A stretch of 29,488 nucleotides of DNA from Saccoglossus kowalevskii (Eukaryota; Hemichordata; Enteropneusta; Harrimaniidae). Under the pieces are notes generated by a model. It saw nothing but the letters and a program-made list of their open reading frames with translations, did no database searches and was not told the origin of the DNA. Positions 18,846-27,420 of the stretch are shown one piece after another. Position 1 is the first letter of the stretch. Each line of letters opens with the position of its first letter. The stretch is from the NCBI RefSeq assembly GCF_000003605.2, contig NW_003125405.1, positions 1-29,488 on the forward strand, in the 5' to 3' direction. A program made the position numbers and the translations under genes.

Positions 18846-18990
18846 CACACCCCTTTTGATTAAATACGTACGTATCACCCTTTTTCTATTGGTTGTTCCT
18901 GTCAAATAGAATATTCAACACAGTGTCGATAACGCCAACGCCTTAATGTAGTATTGCTTATAAAGCAAGAGAAGACACGAGTCATCAAAG
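18846..18990 (+). promoter_or_regulatory. Core promoter of the neuropeptide-like gene
   Basis: The elements are in the expected order. A CACACCCC box lies at 18,846-18,853. A palindromic TACGTACGTA lies at 18,865-18,874. ATTGG (reverse CCAAT) at 18,888-18,892 is about 95 bp before the start. A TATA box TATAAAG lies at 18,959-18,965. An initiator-like TCATCAA at 18,982-18,988 sits 25-28 bp after the TATA box, giving a predicted start near 18,984-18,990. A TATA-driven start fits a tissue-restricted gene. All element calls are by motif. Confidence 0.6.
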
Positions 18991-19072
18991 TAGTGAAAAC
19001 CGTTAGACCTGTGAAGAGATCAATTTGGTAATCATAGATTGTTTTGTATATATATATTCGTAACGTATTAAG
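18984..19072 (+). other. Non-coding first exon (5' UTR) of the neuropeptide-like gene
   Basis: The exon begins at the inferred initiator and ends with the consensus donor AAG|GTAAGTTA (GT at 19,073). It contains no ATG, so the first AUG of the spliced message is the one at 19,254 in exon 2. Intron 1 is short, 19,073-19,242 (170 bp), and ends in TTTTAATTCTACAG. A short untranslated first exon is common in neuropeptide genes. Confidence 0.65.
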
Positions 19073-19253
19073 GTAAGTTAGAAGACTTTTATAATTCTAT
19101 TCAATGATTATACTTACTTCTATGTTATCTACAATTTTACATTACGTACATATTGGTTCCATGTTTTGTTTACTTTGCACAGTGTTAAAAATTTAAAATT
19201 GTTATCATTCGATTAATGCTTATGTTAATTTTAATTCTACAGAAAACATCGAT

Positions 19254-19377
19254 ATGCGCTACAGAGATCTACTAGCTATATTTCTACTTTTATTTGTTGC
19301 TATGACAACAGTAGACAGTATGGGACTACCGTGTGTTGATTACTGGGCTAAATGGTGTGGTAGAAGACCAGGAAATA
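19254..19377 (+). CDS. Neuropeptide-like prohormone, coding exon 2 (signal peptide and cysteine-loop peptide)
   Basis: This exon encodes residues 1-41 of a predicted 102-residue secreted precursor. The ATG is the first in the message and has G at -3. Residues 1-22 form a signal peptide: basic MRYRD, a hydrophobic core of Leu, Ile, Phe and Val, and a polar TTVDS end. The peptide follows directly: MGLPCVDYWAKWC, then GRR, then PGN. Cys27 and Cys35 can form one disulfide ring of nine residues containing Tyr30, Trp31 and Trp34. Cleavage at Arg37-Arg38 with Gly36 as amide donor would give a peptide ending in Cys-amide; cleavage at Lys43-Arg44 in the next exon would give a 20-mer. The donor is AATA|GTAAGAAA, phase 1. 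The C-x3-W-A-x2-C spacing loosely recalls GGNG/excitatory peptides, which have one more residue in the loop. Position in the precursor also recalls elevenin. The family is unproven; the gene call is firmer. Confidence 0.75.
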
Positions 19378-22300
19378 GTAAGAAATGTTTTATATCAGCA
19401 TATTAGTTCTGATATTGTCTGCATTAAATACGACTAGGTCTGAATAAAAATATATAGCAAAAATCCATTTAACATAAAAATAATATCTATGGAAGTAAAA
19501 ATAGTAATATATTTTATTCCAAATATTAATTTAGTATTACGCATTGTTGTCAAACAGATTACCGTGTGTATGCATGTTATGTACACTTACGGTATACAAT
19601 TTAAATGATTGGTTGTTACTTAATTATTATCCTAACTAAACTCGATGATTATGAAAAACAAATACGATTCCGATTGTATCCCTCTTAGGGGTAACATACA
19701 AATATGTATTTTCCGTCATAACATGTATACAAAAGTGGGTTATATTCATATCATACCCACTTGACCCGTAAACGCGTTGATCGGCAAAACGTAAGCCCTT
19801 TAGTCGCGGTCGCGCATTTTACAGGTGAAGCGTTTGATACTTACAAGACAGTATATTATTAGCCGTAGGGTAATCAGGTTCGTCTTTATTCAGCACGGTG
19901 TAATCTGCGTGTACGCAGGACTAACTTTTTCATTTACTTCATTCATCATTTGACTCACAAAGGTTTTAATACGTTCGTCTTGCGGCTTTACATTATTAAT
20001 GTTTTGAGGATACATGACCTGACTCGACACTTTGCTGTCCATACTAGCAGTCTCGTTGCATGAATTGTGAGATCATACGTCAAACATATCAACAACAAAC
20101 AAAAGCTTTATATCTTATAGTTAAGTGTGTTTTATACGAATTCGGATTTGAATAATCTTTTAAATGGGAATATTTATCTGTTTTTATGCGTCCCATTAAT
20201 GCAATATGAATAATAAGGATTTGGTTTTTTCTACTGTTTCCATGGAGATCAGTACTCGAGTAAGTTTGCCGGATATGGTGTAGCTGTGTCTTGTAGGCTT
20301 TATTCAGAAGTATCAGTGGCTGTCAAAGCAATTTGCGATTTCTACATCAGAGAATAAGTTTACGAGAGGTGTTAAATTTAAATTACTTCATTGATTCCGT
20401 CATATACCGTGACATGGGGACAATATAATATAGAATTAGTAGAATTATTTACCAGGCTTTGGGGAAAATGCTAATTGAAGCTAGCTAGAATAAAATCAAA
20501 ATGTTAAAGTAGATATTTATCTACACAATGCGATTAATATATTTTTGCTAAAGTTTGATAGTACTCAAGTGGGAGTGTATGGGCATTGAAATTACTCGTC
20601 TGAATAGATAGAGTACTTGTCAATATAGGAAACAGTATTTGTTTTTTTTACTAGTAAAGAATGTTATCTTAATGACATAACTAATTTCGTCTCTACCTGT
20701 AACATAAACATGGAAATGAACATATAGCACTGGAATGGGAACACTAGGTGTCAATATATCAGTCCTACAAGGGAACATAAACAACAGCGTTAAAATTAAA
20801 CACAAACATCGGTCAAACTTAATGGGTGGTCTGGGGTACATACAACCTGACAGGAGCAACAGGTTAATAACGGTGTTGTGATATATTCATTTCAACAATA
20901 CGACATCATCGGCAGTGGCAAAAATTTGCATGTAGAATATGTAGCGTTTGTATATGTATGCGGAAATAGACGATGCGCTTGCTGTAAAGTTTGTCTCTGA
21001 CTATATTCAGTAATCAGTCGTGACTCAGATACAAATTGTTTCAACTGCTAAAATGAGAGATATCTGGGTCAAGTAAACGATTCTCCTTTATGCACAAAAA
21101 GGTTTTAGGAAATTTATGGAGATAATTTAGACAACACGAGGTCATTTTATTGTTTAATTTGCCTGTTTATCTCCGGGTCAACAGAACATTATGACTGTTG
21201 TTACATTAATGTAATAGTTGCACTATTTCCTAGCATGTGGTTCGTCACACCGACGATTCTAAAACAAATAGCTTAAAATGACGTGCAATGAACGTGGTCA
21301 TTCAGTGACTAGCTGTTAAATACACAAGCCAATTCCCGGACATCACAGACAACATGCAATAGATATCTACACGCATGAATATATTATGTATTCATGGTTC
21401 ATAACGTGCTTCAGGACATCAGGACAATTCTGTTGACTAGAAGGGACAACCAAACTGGGTGGAATCAACGTAATTACAGGAAAACAAACACACATAAATC
21501 ACACTTAACACGAGATTCGAACTCCTACTAACAGGCGCCTTAACTATAACATAAATACTCAAATAATTACCTCTAAACACAAATCCAGTTTAATGTTTAT
21601 TGGTTTTCAGAATAATTAGTTATAATTGTCATGTATTCTTTTGAAATTATGTTTTTTTTCTATGAAATGGTAATTGTCACGTAGTAATTACAGTGATATT
21701 AGCCTCCGTGACTGCGCAATAACGGTTATACTAATTTATTAGATGTTATATATTTTACTTTTATTAGTTCGTGTCCATATATTATATATATGTTTTATTT
21801 TCTGTAATCAGAGTTATTGATTTATACACGCCTCTGGCACATTGAATGTAAATAGTGTTAATATTTGTATGAATATTAGATTCCAAAATTACCCCAGAAC
21901 ACGTGTTTTAACAATCTCAAAAACCATTAGAAAACTCAATTAACCTTGGTAACAGTAGTGCTACTGTGGAATCCTAGCGGTCTCGGCTAAACAGAACAAA
22001 CTAGTAGAGCAGAAAAGAAAACGTGTATTTGTAACTGTCAGTAAAATTTATGTAACTGTATTAAACGTATATGCACGTTTACGTAACACATCATATGTAA
22101 CTGTCAGTACCGTAGTCGCTGGGGGCGGTGTTCACTATACGTCATTTCGAATTACGATTTTCATACCATTGAGTGTGTCGTGATAGGTAGTGTGTCTGTA
22201 CACAGTGGCGAGGCGGTTTCCGTGTACATTTATCGGTGTTATGCAAATAGATCGATGACGTAGTATGGTGAAAATATATAATTTACTTTGCCCACTCAAC

Positions 22301-23424
22301 CTCCTAAATACTATGAAACAATAAACCCGCAATGTTGCGAGGTCCTTGGTAACAATTTGGAATCAAACTTTCAGAAAAATATTTATTTCGAACCTAGCGT
22401 AGAAGAAAATATTGAAACTACATATTGATGTAGTGAGGTTGTCATTAGAATGTCCATTTCGACCACATGCAGCCTCTATATCACCTATTTCGTTCTATTG
22501 GTTTAGAACAACTGCATTTTTAGTTATACACATACATGGATTATATATTATGCATATATAACAATTTTGCTTTCTTGCACGAAGCCAAAGTGTACGTGAT
22601 CCCCCCGTACCCTATTCTAGAAATGTCGGTTTGAAGCTATCTATCAGTATCAATTCCCTGTACGAGAACACACAATTACATGTATGCCATTTTTATTGTA
22701 GTGTAGTAGATTTATTGACTTAATTAACGACATTATATCTAATATTGATAGCTATTAATTGTTATTTACTGGCGTTACGGATATATTAATGCAATGTAAT
22801 CATCGATTTAAAACTAATCTAGTTTGGGAAATTAATAAATAATCTAATCAACCTGACTTGATGATCACGGCCAAGTCAAATTACCATGTCAATGCGACTA
22901 TTCTTCATGTCTCAATCCTCACATAAACATTAACGTGTAATTAAAAATATTGTTTTTGCGGTAATACTTGATGTATCAATGGGCTATAGACCCAAATGGC
23001 CGCTGAGATATTGTTGACAGCTGAGAGGGAGAGAGGGACACGAGACTTTTCACCCTCCATATTGCTTCATTCTTTTGTGATCGCGTCTAGTGTTCAAACT
23101 ATCATGGTAGCAGTGGACGTGAGAAAAAGGGAAAATAAGACACCGTTTTAGGGGCACAAATATGTCTCGTGATTCTCTCTTTCGTAACGAAGTTTCGGCG
23201 GCCATCTGAGTCTAAGGTCTGTCGAACGCTAATTTATTTGTTTTAGTGTGTATCAAAAAATAATGTCGACATTTTACCGATAATATGCATGTAATTGTTA
23301 TTTATCCCAATCAGAGAAACGTTGTAGTAATATAAAGATGTGTATTGAAAACAATTATGTCTTATATAGATGTACATATGTAGTTGTTTTAATGGAATCG
23401 TTAACAAAGACATTTCATTCAAAG
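19378..23424 (+). other. Large intron of the neuropeptide-like gene, 5' part
   Basis: The intron spans 19,378-26,834. This first part is AT-rich with no exon I can support. A small direct repeat TGTAACTGTCAGTA occurs near 22,027 and 22,100. If the intron were retained, the frame would add SKKCFISAY and stop. Confidence 0.5.
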
Positions 23425-23440
23425 CAAGATTATTAATGCT

Positions 23441-23564
23441 AGCAAATAACACCGAATAAACGGCAATGTAAAGACTATGTCTAATTATAGTAAATACGTA
23501 CTGCGTGCGTGACTCGAACCGGCGCTCGCGTACGGCACCTAATCGCCTAGCTTCACGCCACTAC
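23441..23564 (-). repeat. SINE terminal direct repeat, copy A (full pol III promoter adjoining)
   Basis: This copy is about 98% identical to 23,810-23,933. On the minus strand it begins GTAGTGGCGTGAAGC and ends GGTGTTATTTGCT. It holds the B box at 23,511-23,520, and its A box lies just outside at 23,572-23,582. It abuts the target duplication at 23,440. Confidence 0.9.
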
Positions 23565-23809
23565 ACGTCTTCCCCTCGGCCACCGGGCATCCCCAAAAAA
23601 GGATGCTTAATAACCGAGCTTATTACGTGCAGAGAACGTGAAACCCGTCCACGCGATACGCGCCACACAGCATGGCCACAATGCGGCAAAGGCCTTCAGA
23701 TCTGGCTGTAGTAGGATGGTGAAAGTAATGGTACAGCATTTTAACAGTGAATAAGTACTGAGAAATAATTTTTAAACTCATAGTTGCTGTCGACATAGGA
23801 AGTAAAGTA

Positions 23810-23933
23810 AGCAAATAACACCGAATAAACGACAAGGTAAAGACTATGTCTAATTATAGTAAATACGTACTGCGTGCGTGACTCGAACCGGCGCTCGCGT
23901 ACGGCACCTAATCGCCTAGCTTCACGCCACTAC
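23810..23933 (-). repeat. SINE terminal direct repeat, copy B (lacks the A box)
   Basis: This is the same 124 bp as copy A, with the B box at 23,880-23,889. It is bounded by the right-hand target duplication, so its head is cut at GTAGTGG and no A box is present. It is therefore unlikely to be transcribed by pol III on its own. Confidence 0.9.
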
Positions 23934-24614
23934 AAGATTATTAATGCTGCCACTTGAACAATTTTGACGGATAAAATTGAAAATTTGTTTGTAAAAACGT
24001 ATTTGTCCAAGAATCAGTCTGTTAATCGTGATTGTGCTTTAAGGCCTAAATAACTAGAAAGATGGAAACCAGGTTTGCATAATATTACTGAAAAACCAGT
24101 CACTTTCCGTATCTTGAAATAACATCACACTCGGTAAATACATAATTTGACAATCAACAATACTGGATTTACAACTCCACCAATTGACAAACACATACAT
24201 CGATAAGGGACATGAAAGTATTAGATGTATATTCTTGAAAGGTGGCAGTCTTCGCGCTGCGCACGTTTGACATTTGTATTAATAACTCATGAATTTCCCT
24301 CAATCCAATGCGTTCTTCTAATGGAAATCACAAGTATTAACGCCGGTGACTTCTTCGATACCTTCCAATTACCTAAAAATACCTAATTAAAGGTTCGTAA
24401 CGTCCCAGTTTGTACCCAGTTTGATCTGCGAAACAGTCAAAGTCGTCATCTTTGTTTATATGAGATCCACATATCTTGCGCATGCGTCGCGCAACGACTA
24501 CCACCCTTTAAATGAATATATTAGGATTTCTGAATGTTTTAAATAACGATTATTCATTTATAGTAATTTTCGAGAAGCAGTGATACAAGTTACATTATGT
24601 ACCCTGTTATGGAT

Positions 24615-24886
24615 CTTTGTTGTGTTATTTCCTCGAGTTATGAGTATTGGGAATAATCCGAGTGTTGCATTATCGTGTTTGAAAACGAAATATAAATCCC
24701 AGCCATGCATTGTCAATCATTAGACCAAATGTATTATGACGAATTAAATACAATTCGAGTTAGTCATGTTAAAAACAGGGCGGCAGGAAACAACACAGAA
24801 AAATCAATATTTGTGGCTGATCACTGACAACAATTGTTATAAATCACTTTCTTGAACAAATAATTTAACCTCAGATACAAAACGTA
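24615..24886. repeat. 272-bp interspersed direct repeat, copy 1
   Basis: This segment is matched by 26,295-26,566 at a constant offset of 1680 bp, so with no net insertion or deletion. By eye identity is about 90%. Conserved blocks include AATATAAATCCCAGCCATGC, GAGTTAGTCATGTTAAAAAC and CAATATTTGTGGCTGATCAC. No terminal inverted repeats, pol III boxes or coding frame are seen. The right edge coincides with a 14-bp NRF1-type palindrome. Confidence 0.9.
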
Positions 24887-24900
24887 ATGCGCATGCGCAT
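24887..24900. promoter_or_regulatory. NRF1-type palindrome
   Basis: ATGCGCATGCGCAT is a perfect 14-bp palindrome containing the NRF1 consensus TGCGCATGCGCA. A near match TTGCGCATGCGTC lies 410 bp upstream at 24,477-24,489. They are intronic, with no CpG island or transcription start evident. Confidence 0.4.
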
Positions 24901-25181
24901 CAATGGAATTGTTTGGACTGACATTACAATCAAGCAAAGAATATTTTGACATGACCGCTTTGTGAAATTATGACTTTTAGCAAATGCATATGTATGATCG
25001 ATCTTTCCTTTGATTCATATAACAGTTGATTTCAAACATAGCTGTGAAGTATGGATCGGTTTGTGTTGTAATTTGATCTAAATAATTTGTTATATGTAGC
25101 ACACGTATTGTTGGGATTCGTCGCTGATGTGCCGTGTACAATCACTAGTTCTTTTTTCTCTAAAACCATTAACAGCTTTAA

Positions 25182-25270
25182 GGTTATTTTAGTATTTGTG
25201 CTTGAGGACGACAAGGGGGTTATTTTAGTATTTGTGCTAGGGGATATTACGTGGGTTATTTTATTACATT
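25182..25270. repeat. 36-bp minisatellite, about 2.5 copies
   Basis: GGTTATTTTAGTATTTGTGC starts at 25,182 and 25,218, and a diverged unit GGTTATTTTATTACATTGC starts at 25,254. The period is exactly 36 bp, so an open frame crosses it as a 12-residue repeat (VILVFVLEDDKG, VILVFVLGDITW). I see no splice signals or homologous family for that frame and treat it as a non-coding minisatellite in the intron. Confidence 0.8.
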
Positions 25271-26119
25271 GCTTTATAATTCAGGGTCATGAACTAATGA
25301 TGACGCCCGGTATTCGTCGCTTACGACAATGTTCGCTTTACTGTTTGCAGATTTGGTTAAACAAAACAATTACTAAAAGTATAAGTTAAAATTTCTCGTA
25401 AAGTATCGTTTTAAATACCTGCCATCAAGCAGACAGCTTAGATTAGCAATCCTTTGAAATCATCAGACACATATATTAGTTTGGGATTAAAGATATAAAT
25501 ACAGATTATAAGCTTATTATTTACTCATCTATTCAATAGTCTCCACACAGTAAAAACGTAAACCTCATACAGTGTTTGTAATAAAATAGAGGCTCGTAGT
25601 AGTAGGCTAATAGGTTGAACGTTATTACTAACCCGTGGTAATAAGTATACACACAGGTTAATTTAGTATGTTCTATAATCTGTAATAGTTATTTCTAATA
25701 TTAGGTCAGGGCGACTAGTATACGTATATGTGTTGTACATTTTTTCATATTTATTTAATCCTCAATAAATTTGAAAATGTAGTACAAGTGACATCGGACA
25801 ACAACAGTCAGTCACGTGATCACAATTAAATTAATATTTATCTGAAAACAATTACTGAAACTAAAATGAAATCAAAGGGGTTTCCAGACATCTGAAATAC
25901 CGAACAAACATACACGCTGGGAAAGCATTCCCGCTATGAACAATATTACTCTTGTACCAATTTTTACTGATTGACTTCTATGATCTTCAAAAAGAAATGA
26001 ATGATCCTAAATTATTAACTAATCGAAAGTAATCTAATTTCGATGTCAATCACAGATAATTCAGAAATTGTTCAAATATTGTCTATTTCTAATAAAACAT
26101 CCTAGACAAACATTAATAA

Positions 26120-26263
26120 AACCAGCTCTGTCATTGTGTGAATGACATATATAAAATAGTAAATGGAAAAAATCATGTAACATTTAATAAAGCTAATTCT
26201 TTGTTAAGTAATTTTTACAGAATAGCACTGTACATAGCTTTGTTCGCATTGAACACACCAATG
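26120..26263. repeat. Diverged direct repeat X, copy 1
   Basis: This segment, starting AACCAGCTCTGTCATT, resembles 26,572-26,715 (offset about 451 bp). Shared pieces are AACCAGCTCTGTCATT, ATAGTAAA, AAAATCATGTA, TTTT-(A/G)CAGAATA, and TTGTACATAG or CTGTACATAG followed by TTTGTT. The 272-bp repeat copy 2 lies between the two, giving the order X, Y, X'. This points to an old local segmental duplication just upstream of exon 3. Confidence 0.6.
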
Positions 26264-26294
26264 TGTTGTGTGTTTGTAAGGCTGTCTGCTACCT

Positions 26295-26566
26295 CTTTGT
26301 TGTGTTATTTGCACGAAATGTGAGAGTTGGGAATAATTCAAGTGTTGCATTAGCTTGTTTGGTAACGAAATATAAATCCCAGCCATGCATTGTTAATTAT
26401 TAGACCAAATTTATTATGACAAATTCAATAAACTTCGAGTTAGTCATGTTAAAAACAGGGCAGCAGGAAACAACACAGAAAAATCAATATTTGTGGCTGA
26501 TCACTGACAACACTTGTTATTAATCACTTTCTTAAACAAATAATTCAACCTCAGATAGAAAATGTG
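26295..26566. repeat. 272-bp interspersed direct repeat, copy 2
   Basis: This is the partner of 24,615-24,886. It ends a few bases before the second copy of repeat X and about 270 bp before the exon 3 acceptor. It is non-coding as far as can be seen. Confidence 0.9.
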
Positions 26567-26571
26567 ATATA

Positions 26572-26715
26572 ACCAGCTCTGTCATTATGTGAAAGAATAT
26601 TATATATATTATAGTAAACGAGGCAAAAATCATGTATTTTTTGCAGAATACCAAATTTGAATCAAAATTTAAGTAAAGCTCTCCCATTGTACATAGATTT
26701 GTTTATACACACAAC
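26572..26715. repeat. Diverged direct repeat X, copy 2
   Basis: This copy is related to 26,120-26,263 but more AT-rich (an ATATATATT expansion near 26,600). It lies in the 3' end of the intron, about 120 bp before exon 3. A TTTTTTGCAG acceptor-like string at its centre (ending near 26,645) matches TTTTTACAG in copy 1. The following sequence has no conserved coding frame, so I do not call an exon. Confidence 0.55.
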
Positions 26716-26834
26716 ATATTATGTATGTGTGTATCTGAATGCAGTTTGTTGGAATAAATCCCAAACAGTATCTTTATTATGTATTTTATTTATTCTTTCT
26801 ACATTCTATATAATTTCCCTCTATTTTCTTTCAG

Positions 26835-27019
26835 TAAAGAGATCACATTCCTCGATGAAAGCCCAGAAGGATTTGTTGGCCCCATTGGTAAAAAATGCAA
26901 TACTCAAGATCTTGAATGAAAACTTAGAAGAAGATGAGTTCGATGACTATCTCCCGTTACCAGTGGAAACAGATGCAGAATACAATAACAACAGACAAAT
27001 GACGAACAACTGGCTTTGA
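26835..27019 (+). CDS. Neuropeptide-like prohormone, terminal coding exon 3 (processing site and acidic C-terminal peptide)
   Basis: A textbook acceptor (TTTCCCTCTATTTTCTTTCAG, ending at 26,834) opens this exon. It supplies two bases that complete a split Ile42 codon in phase with exon 2. The frame then reads KRSHSSMKAQKDLLAPLVKN and continues to a TGA at 27,017-27,019. Lys43-Arg44 is a dibasic convertase site releasing the cysteine-loop peptide. Residues about 55-70 (LLAPLVKNAILKILNEN) form an amphipathic helix. An acidic stretch EEDEFDDY follows, then an Asn-rich tail ending NNWL. No cysteines occur here, so the only pair in the precursor is in exon 2. Acidic, helix-bearing spacer peptides are usual in prohormones and probably aid sorting or folding. 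The open frame extends upstream to 26,657 by chance. An additional symmetric phase-1 exon inside the 7.46-kb intron cannot be excluded. Confidence 0.75.
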
Positions 27020-27420
27020 TTTGGACACATTACTTGATGTATATTAAACCACACAAGCGCGCCACCACGCACGTGATCGTCACGTGCAAGAGAAGTATAT
27101 AACGTGACTTTTATGTGGGCCTTCCGAATTGTTAGCCTTTTTGCAATGTTTTCGGCCGATGGGTGGGAAGTGGAATATTAATGTTTTCCCATGGGTTCAA
27201 CTTTGCGCTGTCATGAACTTGCAAAGTACGAGATGTAATATTTCAGAAAAAAAATCAATCACTCGCAATTGCCTTAAATATGGCTTATTATAATCACACT
27301 TTACATTGCTATTGTAAATCTAACGTACTTTTTCCCATTGTATCTTTTCTTCATCGCATAGATGGATTAAATTTATTACTATTTATATCTTTAAATAAAC
27401 AACATGCAAATGATTAATTT
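27020..27420 (+). terminator. 3' untranslated region and polyadenylation signal of the neuropeptide-like gene
   Basis: The first canonical AATAAA after the stop lies at 27,394-27,399, followed by a T/GT-rich stretch (TTATGTTGTACTTCTTTATTG). This predicts a 3' UTR near 400 bp. A weaker ATTAAA occurs at 27,043. The UTR contains the E-box hairpin listed separately. Confidence 0.6.
27069..27087. promoter_or_regulatory. Perfect hairpin with two E-boxes (CACGTG) in the 3' UTR
   Basis: GCACGTGA-TCG-TCACGTGC is an 8-bp perfect inverted repeat around three bases. Each arm carries CACGTG, the site for bHLH factors such as USF, MITF/TFEB, CLOCK and MYC. As RNA it would form a stable short stem-loop in the message. 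Which level it acts at, if any, is not visible. The surrounding bases are locally GC-rich. Confidence 0.5.

What the first reader, a model, noticed from the sequence alone, without database searches (positions are those of the whole stretch)
18984..27420. Complete, phase-consistent gene for a small neuropeptide-type precursor, hidden in three exons
Seen: TATA/CCAAT promoter, ATG-free first exon ending AAG|GTAAGT, acceptor at 19,242, signal-peptide exon ending in phase 1 at 19,377, excellent acceptor at 26,834 that restores the frame through a split Ile codon, stop at 27,019, AATAAA at 27,394. Known: the order signal peptide, Cys-loop peptide, Gly-Arg-Arg / Lys-Arg sites and acidic spacer is the standard neuropeptide prohormone layout. 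Inferred: the product is a secreted 102-residue prohormone. Neither coding exon would be found by open-frame length alone, because each is short.
Basis: partly seen in the sequence, partly recalled or inferred. Interest (0 to 1): 0.8.

Follow-up and report, generated by a model that had tools for sequence, protein, structure and literature searches.

The report
Acorn-worm disulfide peptide hormone gene family
The window holds one of four related acorn-worm genes that each seem to encode a small secreted ring-shaped peptide, probably a hormone or neuropeptide, and the relatives show that it is cut out at a different place than first thought.

Summary
The gene model holds; the peptide assignment is wrong at one end. 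The own genome (572 Mb) yields three paralogues of the coding exon. Each has a signal-peptide-like start, LPC[VF]DxWxxxCGxxxG, a Lys-Arg site, an acceptor 5-20 bases before the ATG and a phase-1 donor just after the peptide. A motif scan finds these four and one hit judged to be chance. The paralogues indicate a mature peptide running to Lys-Arg (18-20 residues, one disulfide, not amidated); Gly-Arg-Arg is present in 1 of 4 copies. The window's last exon rests on splice signals and on restoring Lys-Arg, not on homology. Mitochondrial code and the vasotocin-type peptide CFISDCARG point to an acorn worm close to Saccoglossus. No Pfam family matches any of the four; limited literature searches found no description. 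Layout resembles CCHamide/excitatory-peptide/elevenin precursors, but defining features fail. Best reading: an undescribed hemichordate family of cyclic secreted signalling peptides. Expression and receptor are untested.

The parts
18959..18964 (+). TATAAA 25 bases upstream of the proposed start of exon 1
   Evidence: weak alone (26 TATAAA on this strand of the window)
18984..19072 (+). exon 1, 5' untranslated, no ATG, ends AAG|GTAAGT
   Evidence: the start position is inferred from the TATA box
19243..19377 (+). exon 2: short leader, ATG at 19254, signal peptide and cyclic peptide, phase-1 donor A|GTAAGA
   Evidence: paralogous exons
19254..19319 (+). signal peptide, residues 1-22 (cleavage site inferred by eye)
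   Evidence: hydropathy peak 3.48 over 9 residues; similar hydrophobic starts in 3 paralogues; no signal-peptide predictor was run
19323..19377 (+). mature peptide GLPCVDYWAKWCGRRPGN(I): residues 24-42, the last codon split by intron 2; Cys27 at 19332-19334, Cys35 at 19356-19358
   Evidence: invariant L25 P26 C27 D29 W31 C35 G36 G40 in four paralogues; codons checked
19378..26834 (+). intron 2, phase 1, 7457 bases
   Evidence: phase-1 donors near this place in 3 of 3 paralogues (introns 925 bases, about 5.3 kb, about 16.4 kb)
26835..27019 (+). coding part of exon 3: end of Ile42, Lys43-Arg44 (26837-26842), acidic C-terminal spacer, stop
   Evidence: acceptor one of the best 2 of 1369 AGs; restores Lys-Arg at the conserved place; no significant homology to the paralogues' exons 3
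27394..27399 (+). AATAAA, possible polyadenylation signal
   Evidence: three further AATAAA/ATTAAA within 481 bases after the stop

Best explanation
The locus is one of four paralogous genes of a hemichordate (Saccoglossus-like acorn worm) that encode precursors of small secreted cyclic peptides. The precursor enters the secretory route by its signal peptide. Cys27 and Cys35 form a ring with seven residues between them. A prohormone convertase cuts after Lys43-Arg44 and a carboxypeptidase trims the basic residues. [quoted passage not shown] Shown: splice signals and reading frame, paralogues, conserved residues, Lys-Arg site, phase-1 donors. Inferred: transcription, secretion, disulfide, cleavage, hormone or neuropeptide role, receptor class.
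For: Three paralogous exons found with the window protein (E 0.0024, 0.0092, 0.023) and, from the paralogue P4, the other three (9.4e-10, 9.3e-6, and the window at 0.0045). All four have an acceptor-like AG 5-20 bases upstream of the ATG and a phase-1 donor right after the peptide. A last exon was picked for P2 by its splice signal, phase and acidity; exons found downstream of P3 and P4 in phase 1 then scored 51 and 77 against it, next best 34 and 29 among 203 and 209 candidates, opposite-strand controls up to 31 and 38; P2 also finds the P4 last exon genome-wide, weakly (E 0.12). Invariant residues M1, L7, L25, P26, C27, D29, W31, C35, G36, G40, K43, R44, L72. Identity by codon position in the peptide block, summed over six non-independent pairs, is 67, 80 and 42 of 102, as expected for selection on protein. 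The DNA motif for P-C-x-D-x-W-x3-C-G occurs 5 times in the genome, control 0: four are this family, the fifth lies in another frame of what I read as an ankyrin repeat. 2 of 449 downstream AGs restore a dibasic site with an open frame of at least 25 codons; the one at 26834 has 17 of 20 pyrimidines before it, the other 13.
Against: No transcript or mass-spectrometry data. Window exon 3 ranks 71st of 1396 candidate exons against a profile of the paralogues' exons 3 (0.2 bits), so the C-terminal part of the precursor is supported by splice signals only. The intron in the window gene sits before Lys-Arg; in the paralogues 3-6 full codons after it. The whole-genome E-values for the window copy alone are modest (0.0024-0.083). 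No sequence from a second species could be compared, and parts of the genome are withheld.
Confidence: 0.75

Rival explanations
1. One reading: the window precursor is cut at Gly36-Arg37-Arg38 and yields an amidated peptide ending at Cys35.
For: Gly-Arg-Arg is a textbook amidation site (recalled) and is present in this copy.
Against: The three paralogues have GRN, GSR and GRL there, with no dibasic pair, and keep Gly40 and Lys-Arg beyond it.
Confidence: 0.12
2. A secreted defensive or mucus peptide (antimicrobial or deterrent) rather than a hormone or neuropeptide.
For: A small divergent gene family with a signal peptide and one disulfide also fits secreted effectors; identity of the three other precursors to the window copy is 25-27%.
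Against: Ring and flanks keep ten invariant residues in four copies, and the peptide sits next to the signal peptide with one Lys-Arg site, the layout described for single-copy excitatory-peptide/CCHamide precursors (PMC6617912 section 12).
Confidence: 0.15
3. The window copy uses another last exon, or is a decaying copy, or is read into the intron to a 50-residue product that ends SKKCFISAY.
For: Its exon 3 does not match the paralogues' exons 3; reading into the intron gives a short open end with Lys-Lys at the place of Lys-Arg; part of the contig beyond the window is withheld and could not be searched.
Against: Strong acceptor, open frame of 60 codons, and the Lys-Arg-Ser junction restored where P2 and P3 have Lys-Arg-Ser and P4 Lys-Arg-Ala.
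Confidence: 0.1
4. Thioredoxin remnant or chance open frame.
For: The stretch CVDYWAKWCG resembles the thioredoxin active-site strand (best E 0.32 for the single protein; 0.13 for the family profile; 0.046 in NCBIfam at 13.9 bits against a cut-off of 96.8).
Against: The matches cover about 10-27 residues; there is no CxxC pair in any of the four; Pfam gives nothing at E up to 10 for any of the four; the paralogues share a gene structure.
Confidence: 0.02

Closest known systems
CCHamide / excitatory peptide (GGNG) precursors of protostomes and CCHamide-like precursors of brittle stars
   Same: Single copy directly after the signal peptide, two cysteines, then a cleavage site (PMC6617912 section 12; PMC5627052 section 7).
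   Different: Those are nearly all amidated, and spiralian members keep a C-terminal Asn, arthropod ones a His; none of the four here has Gly before the conserved Lys-Arg.
Elevenin precursors
   Same: About 20 residues, one disulfide, not amidated; elevenin-like receptors without a predicted precursor are reported for Saccoglossus kowalevskii (PMC10175484 introduction; non-amidation from PMC5627052).
   Different: Elevenins have 8 residues between the cysteines and Arg-Gly after the second; here 7 residues and Gly. No Ile-Asp before the first cysteine.
Bombesin / GRP-type precursors
   Same: Peptide next to the signal peptide; first coding intron is phase 1 and cuts the peptide, as in the window gene (PMC12002301, passages).
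   Different: No disulfide there, amidated, and a further phase-0 intron; here two cysteines, not amidated, one coding intron in the model.
Arnp25 of the starfish Asterias rubens
   Same: 97-residue precursor, two-cysteine peptide after the signal peptide (PMC4772807 section 44).
   Different: Cysteines separated by 4 residues, and amidated.

Membership tests
Neuropeptide / peptide-hormone precursor (general kind) | N-terminal signal peptide | tested here: met
   Hydrophobic core by hydropathy for the window copy; similar starts in 3 of 3 paralogues by eye; no signal-peptide predictor was available
Neuropeptide / peptide-hormone precursor (general kind) | Dibasic cleavage site bounding a conserved peptide | tested here: met
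   Lys-Arg in 4 of 4
Neuropeptide / peptide-hormone precursor (general kind) | Expression in neurons or endocrine cells | not testable with these tools
   no RNA data
CCHamide / excitatory peptide | Two cysteines in a single peptide directly after the signal peptide | tested here: met
   4 of 4; definition from PMC6617912
CCHamide / excitatory peptide | Amidated C-terminus (Gly before the basic pair) | tested here: not met
   0 of 4 at the conserved Lys-Arg; Gly-Arg-Arg in the window copy only
CCHamide / excitatory peptide | Activates a receptor of that clade | not testable with these tools
   none
Elevenin | Eight residues between the two cysteines | tested here: not met
   seven in 4 of 4; definition from PMC10175484
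Elevenin | Arg-Gly after the second cysteine and Ile-Asp before the first | tested here: not met
   Gly follows and Leu-Pro precedes in 4 of 4; residues from PMC10175484
Elevenin | Non-amidated with a disulfide | tested here: inconclusive
   layout agrees; disulfide and end group not measured; definition from PMC5627052
Bombesin / GRP type | Phase-1 intron that cuts the peptide | tested here: met
   window gene only; in the three paralogues the phase-1 donor lies 3-6 codons after Lys-Arg
Bombesin / GRP type | Amidated peptide without a disulfide | tested here: not met
   two cysteines and no Gly before Lys-Arg in 4 of 4
Vasopressin / oxytocin type | Neurophysin domain | tested here: not met
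   no Pfam match in any of the four; the genome has separate neurophysin matches
Thioredoxin | Thioredoxin domain with CxxC | tested here: not met

The most novel reading that the evidence does not exclude
These four hemichordate peptides are the missing ligands of the elevenin-like receptors (or of another orphan clade of the bombesin/endothelin/CCHamide group) that have been predicted in Saccoglossus without a partner. They would be the ambulacrarian branch of that single-disulfide peptide group, diverged in ring size and end group.
Probability: 0.12. Interest if true: 0.75.

Novelty: new member of a known kind. Interest (0 to 1): 0.5.

Why it matters
[quoted passage not shown] A four-gene family of cyclic peptides gives concrete synthetic candidates for such receptors and markers for nervous system or epidermis. 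It also corrects the peptide that one would synthesise: the form ending at Ile42, not the amide ending at Cys35. The case shows that a short split gene read by eye from raw sequence can be confirmed by paralogues alone.

Tried and rejected
Pfam on all four precursors gave nothing at E up to 10. NCBIfam, a prokaryote library, was tried on two of four (window and P2) and gave one sub-threshold thioredoxin strand. PDB sequences gave only sub-significant matches: 13 thioredoxin chains or fusions for the window protein, and 41 sequences for the family profile, nearly all thioredoxins, plus a ribosomal protein, neprilysin and a scorpion toxin at E 0.44-3. Rfam at gathering cut-offs found nothing in the window. 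131 of 205 window frames of 45 residues or more (those of 52 or more, TA repeats left out) were scanned against Pfam: nine families with one member each, best 3e-05; ten of these frames were rescanned and none was the source.

Literature: exact letter strings of the peptide gave 0 papers. A second string search returned 1,300 papers, of which I saw the 20 listed, all about a semiconductor process with the same letters (LPCVD), so it says little about the other five strings. Topic searches. I opened 13 papers, as passages or named sections and none whole; none of what I saw describes this peptide. Supplements were not readable and many subscription papers are not held, so an earlier description cannot be excluded.

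I considered a homologous last exon elsewhere on the contig. The best plus-strand candidates on C1809 had 5.2 bits (upstream of the gene) and 5.0 bits (downstream), and a minus-strand stretch 12.2 bits; none is convincing. I did not look for receptors in this genome.
Full report
What was checked. The three exons were re-read and joined. The CCAAT box is on the minus strand, as ATTGG at 18888. The acceptor at 26834 is outstanding: 2 of 1369 AGs on the strand, itself included, have that many pyrimidines in the 20 bases before it. The acceptor at 19242 is ordinary, 176 of 1369.

Is it more than chance? The window is part of a 572-Mb eukaryotic genome (contig C1809). A search of that genome with the 102-residue protein found, besides its own two exons, three exons at E 0.0024, 0.0092 and 0.023, and one further weak match at 2.3. 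All three start with a signal-peptide-like stretch and continue TKLPCVDFWMEYCGRNAGVKR (C4611 near 107.8 kb, here P2), GLPCVDFWSEVCGSRSGYKR (C4611 near 148.3 kb, P3) and AGLPCFDHWEEVCGRLPGIKR (C4125 near 532.2 kb, P4). Searched from P4, the family closes on itself: P2 9.4e-10, P3 9.3e-6, window 0.0045, and no other match at E up to 10 among the four candidates that the search scored. From the whole P2 precursor the window scores only 0.083. The degenerate DNA motif for P-C-x-D-x-W-x3-C-G occurs five times in the genome against 0 for the reversed control. Four are these genes. The fifth, on C2517, codes in another frame for what I read as an ankyrin repeat. Withheld stretches could hide more members.

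Gene structure. In all four genes an acceptor-like AG lies 5, 11, 17 or 20 bases upstream of the ATG, and a donor in phase 1 lies right after the peptide; the upstream acceptors of the paralogues were judged by eye. A last exon for P2 was picked 925 bases downstream by splice signal, phase and acidity. Candidates downstream of P3 (about 5.3 kb) and P4 (about 16.4 kb, across a withheld stretch), each joining in phase 1, then scored 51 and 77 against it (17 and 32 against the window's exon). The next-best were 34 and 29 among 203 and 209 candidates, and opposite-strand controls reached 31 and 38. P2 also finds the P4 last exon genome-wide, weakly (E 0.12). The three share W-x-x-[YF]-[LI]-R, a basic amphipathic stretch and a P-Y-T or P-x-Y-T end. 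P2 and P3 lie head to head about 40 kb apart (ATGs at 107,856 and 148,262). In the peptide block the identity summed over six pairs (not independent) is 67, 80 and 42 of 102 at codon positions 1, 2 and 3, as expected for selection on the protein.

What the paralogues change. Invariant residues are L25, P26, C27, D29, W31, C35, G36, G40, K43 and R44 besides M1, L7 and L72. At the place of Gly-Arg-Arg, P2 has GRN, P3 GSR and P4 GRL: one of the two arginines is lost in each, so there is no dibasic pair in 3 of 4, while Lys-Arg is present in 4 of 4. The mature peptide therefore most likely runs from about Gly24 (or Met23) to Ile42, is not amidated, and has one ring with seven residues between the cysteines. 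A cut at Gly-Arg-Arg in the window copy alone cannot be excluded.

What stays weak. The window's last exon is not recognisably homologous to the other last exons: a profile of those three ranks it 71st of 1396 candidate exons at 0.2 bits. Its support is the acceptor, the 60-codon frame and the restoration of Lys-Arg where the others have it. Of 449 downstream AGs, 7 give a dibasic pair at that place, 2 of these with an open frame of 25 codons or more; the one at 26834 has 17 of 20 pyrimidines before it, the other 13. In the window the intron lies before Lys-Arg; in the others 3 to 6 full codons after it, in the same phase. Reading on into the intron would give a 50-residue product ending SKKCFISAY.

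Which animal. The mitochondrial contig (17,037 bases, 60% A+T) reads ATA as Ile, TGA as Trp and AAA as Lys at positions that I know as conserved (my reading from recall). In 12 protein genes, with boundaries set by me, it has 98 ATA, 48 AAA, 4 AGA and 0 AGG. Table 3 of PMC3121625 (passages) gives for Saccoglossus kowalevskii: AUA Ile, AAA Lys, AGG absent, AGA Ser; echinoderms read AAA as Asn. ND5 is followed by COB, an order that PMC2697986 gives for hemichordates and for Xenoturbella; Xenoturbella does not read ATA as Ile (passages). A pattern made from the S. kowalevskii vasotocin-type peptide CFISDCARG (PMC7181382, passages) hits once, at C2221:1086887, behind a signal-like sequence and before GKR, about 2.5 kb upstream of a neurophysin exon on the same strand. 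The genome is thus most likely from a Saccoglossus-like acorn worm; the species is not established.

How it most likely works. Signal peptide removed, ring closed in the secretory route, cut after Lys-Arg, trimmed, and released as a short cyclic peptide that acts on a receptor of other cells. Secretion, ring, cut and receptor are inferred from layout.

Compared with what is known. Pfam has no match for any of the four; NCBIfam, tried on two of four, gave only a sub-threshold thioredoxin strand, and PDB likewise. By layout the nearest are CCHamide/excitatory peptide precursors (PMC6617912 section 12) and the brittle-star CCHamide-like precursors (PMC5627052 section 7), but these are amidated. 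Elevenin is not amidated, but has eight residues between its cysteines and Arg-Gly after the second (PMC10175484, sections 3 and 5 and passages). Bombesin-type genes share a phase-1 intron that cuts the peptide (PMC12002301 passages) but lack the disulfide and are amidated. So it is not filed in any of these. PMC10175484 states that elevenin-like receptors are predicted in S. kowalevskii without a precursor. A survey of S. kowalevskii neuropeptide expression (PMC10508912, first of two parts of section 12, and passages) names other peptides in what I saw. That the present family belongs to such an orphan receptor is the boldest reading left open, at about 0.12; no receptor was examined.

Verdict. 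Observation confirmed; interpretation partly supported. A four-gene family of a known kind, undescribed as far as the searches can tell, which is not far.

Noticed in passing
window 19893-20072, minus strand: An open frame ending RIKTFVSQMMNEVNEKVSPAYTQITPC resembles the last-exon helix and P-x-Y-T of the three paralogues (12.2 bits, E 0.011 among 1396 candidates; 11.3 bits, E 0.063 among 4204 frames) but lies on the opposite strand and has no good acceptor. Possibly a decayed relative, possibly chance.
   Followed up: partly
window, one of 131 frames scanned, place not found: One frame matched Pfam Carnosine N-methyltransferase at E 3e-05 and one YABBY_N at 2e-04; ten frames rescanned gave no match.
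   Followed up: partly
window 24614-24888 and 26294-26568; 23434-23565 and 23803-23934: Two pairs of direct repeats (90% and 96% identical) inside intron 2, perhaps mobile-element or duplication remains.
   Followed up: no
G000:C4830 (L003, L011, L012): Mitochondrial gene order looks derived: COX1 lies on the strand opposite to its neighbours ND1 and COX2, and ND2 precedes ND1. PMC3121625 says S. kowalevskii also has a derived order; the orders were not compared.
   Followed up: no
G000:C3808:144108-144341: A second neurophysin-like match with one internal stop, perhaps a relic or a split exon.
   Followed up: no
L004 (P2) and L005 (P3) on G000:C4611: Two family members lie head to head about 40 kb apart, suggesting an inverted local duplication.
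   Followed up: partly
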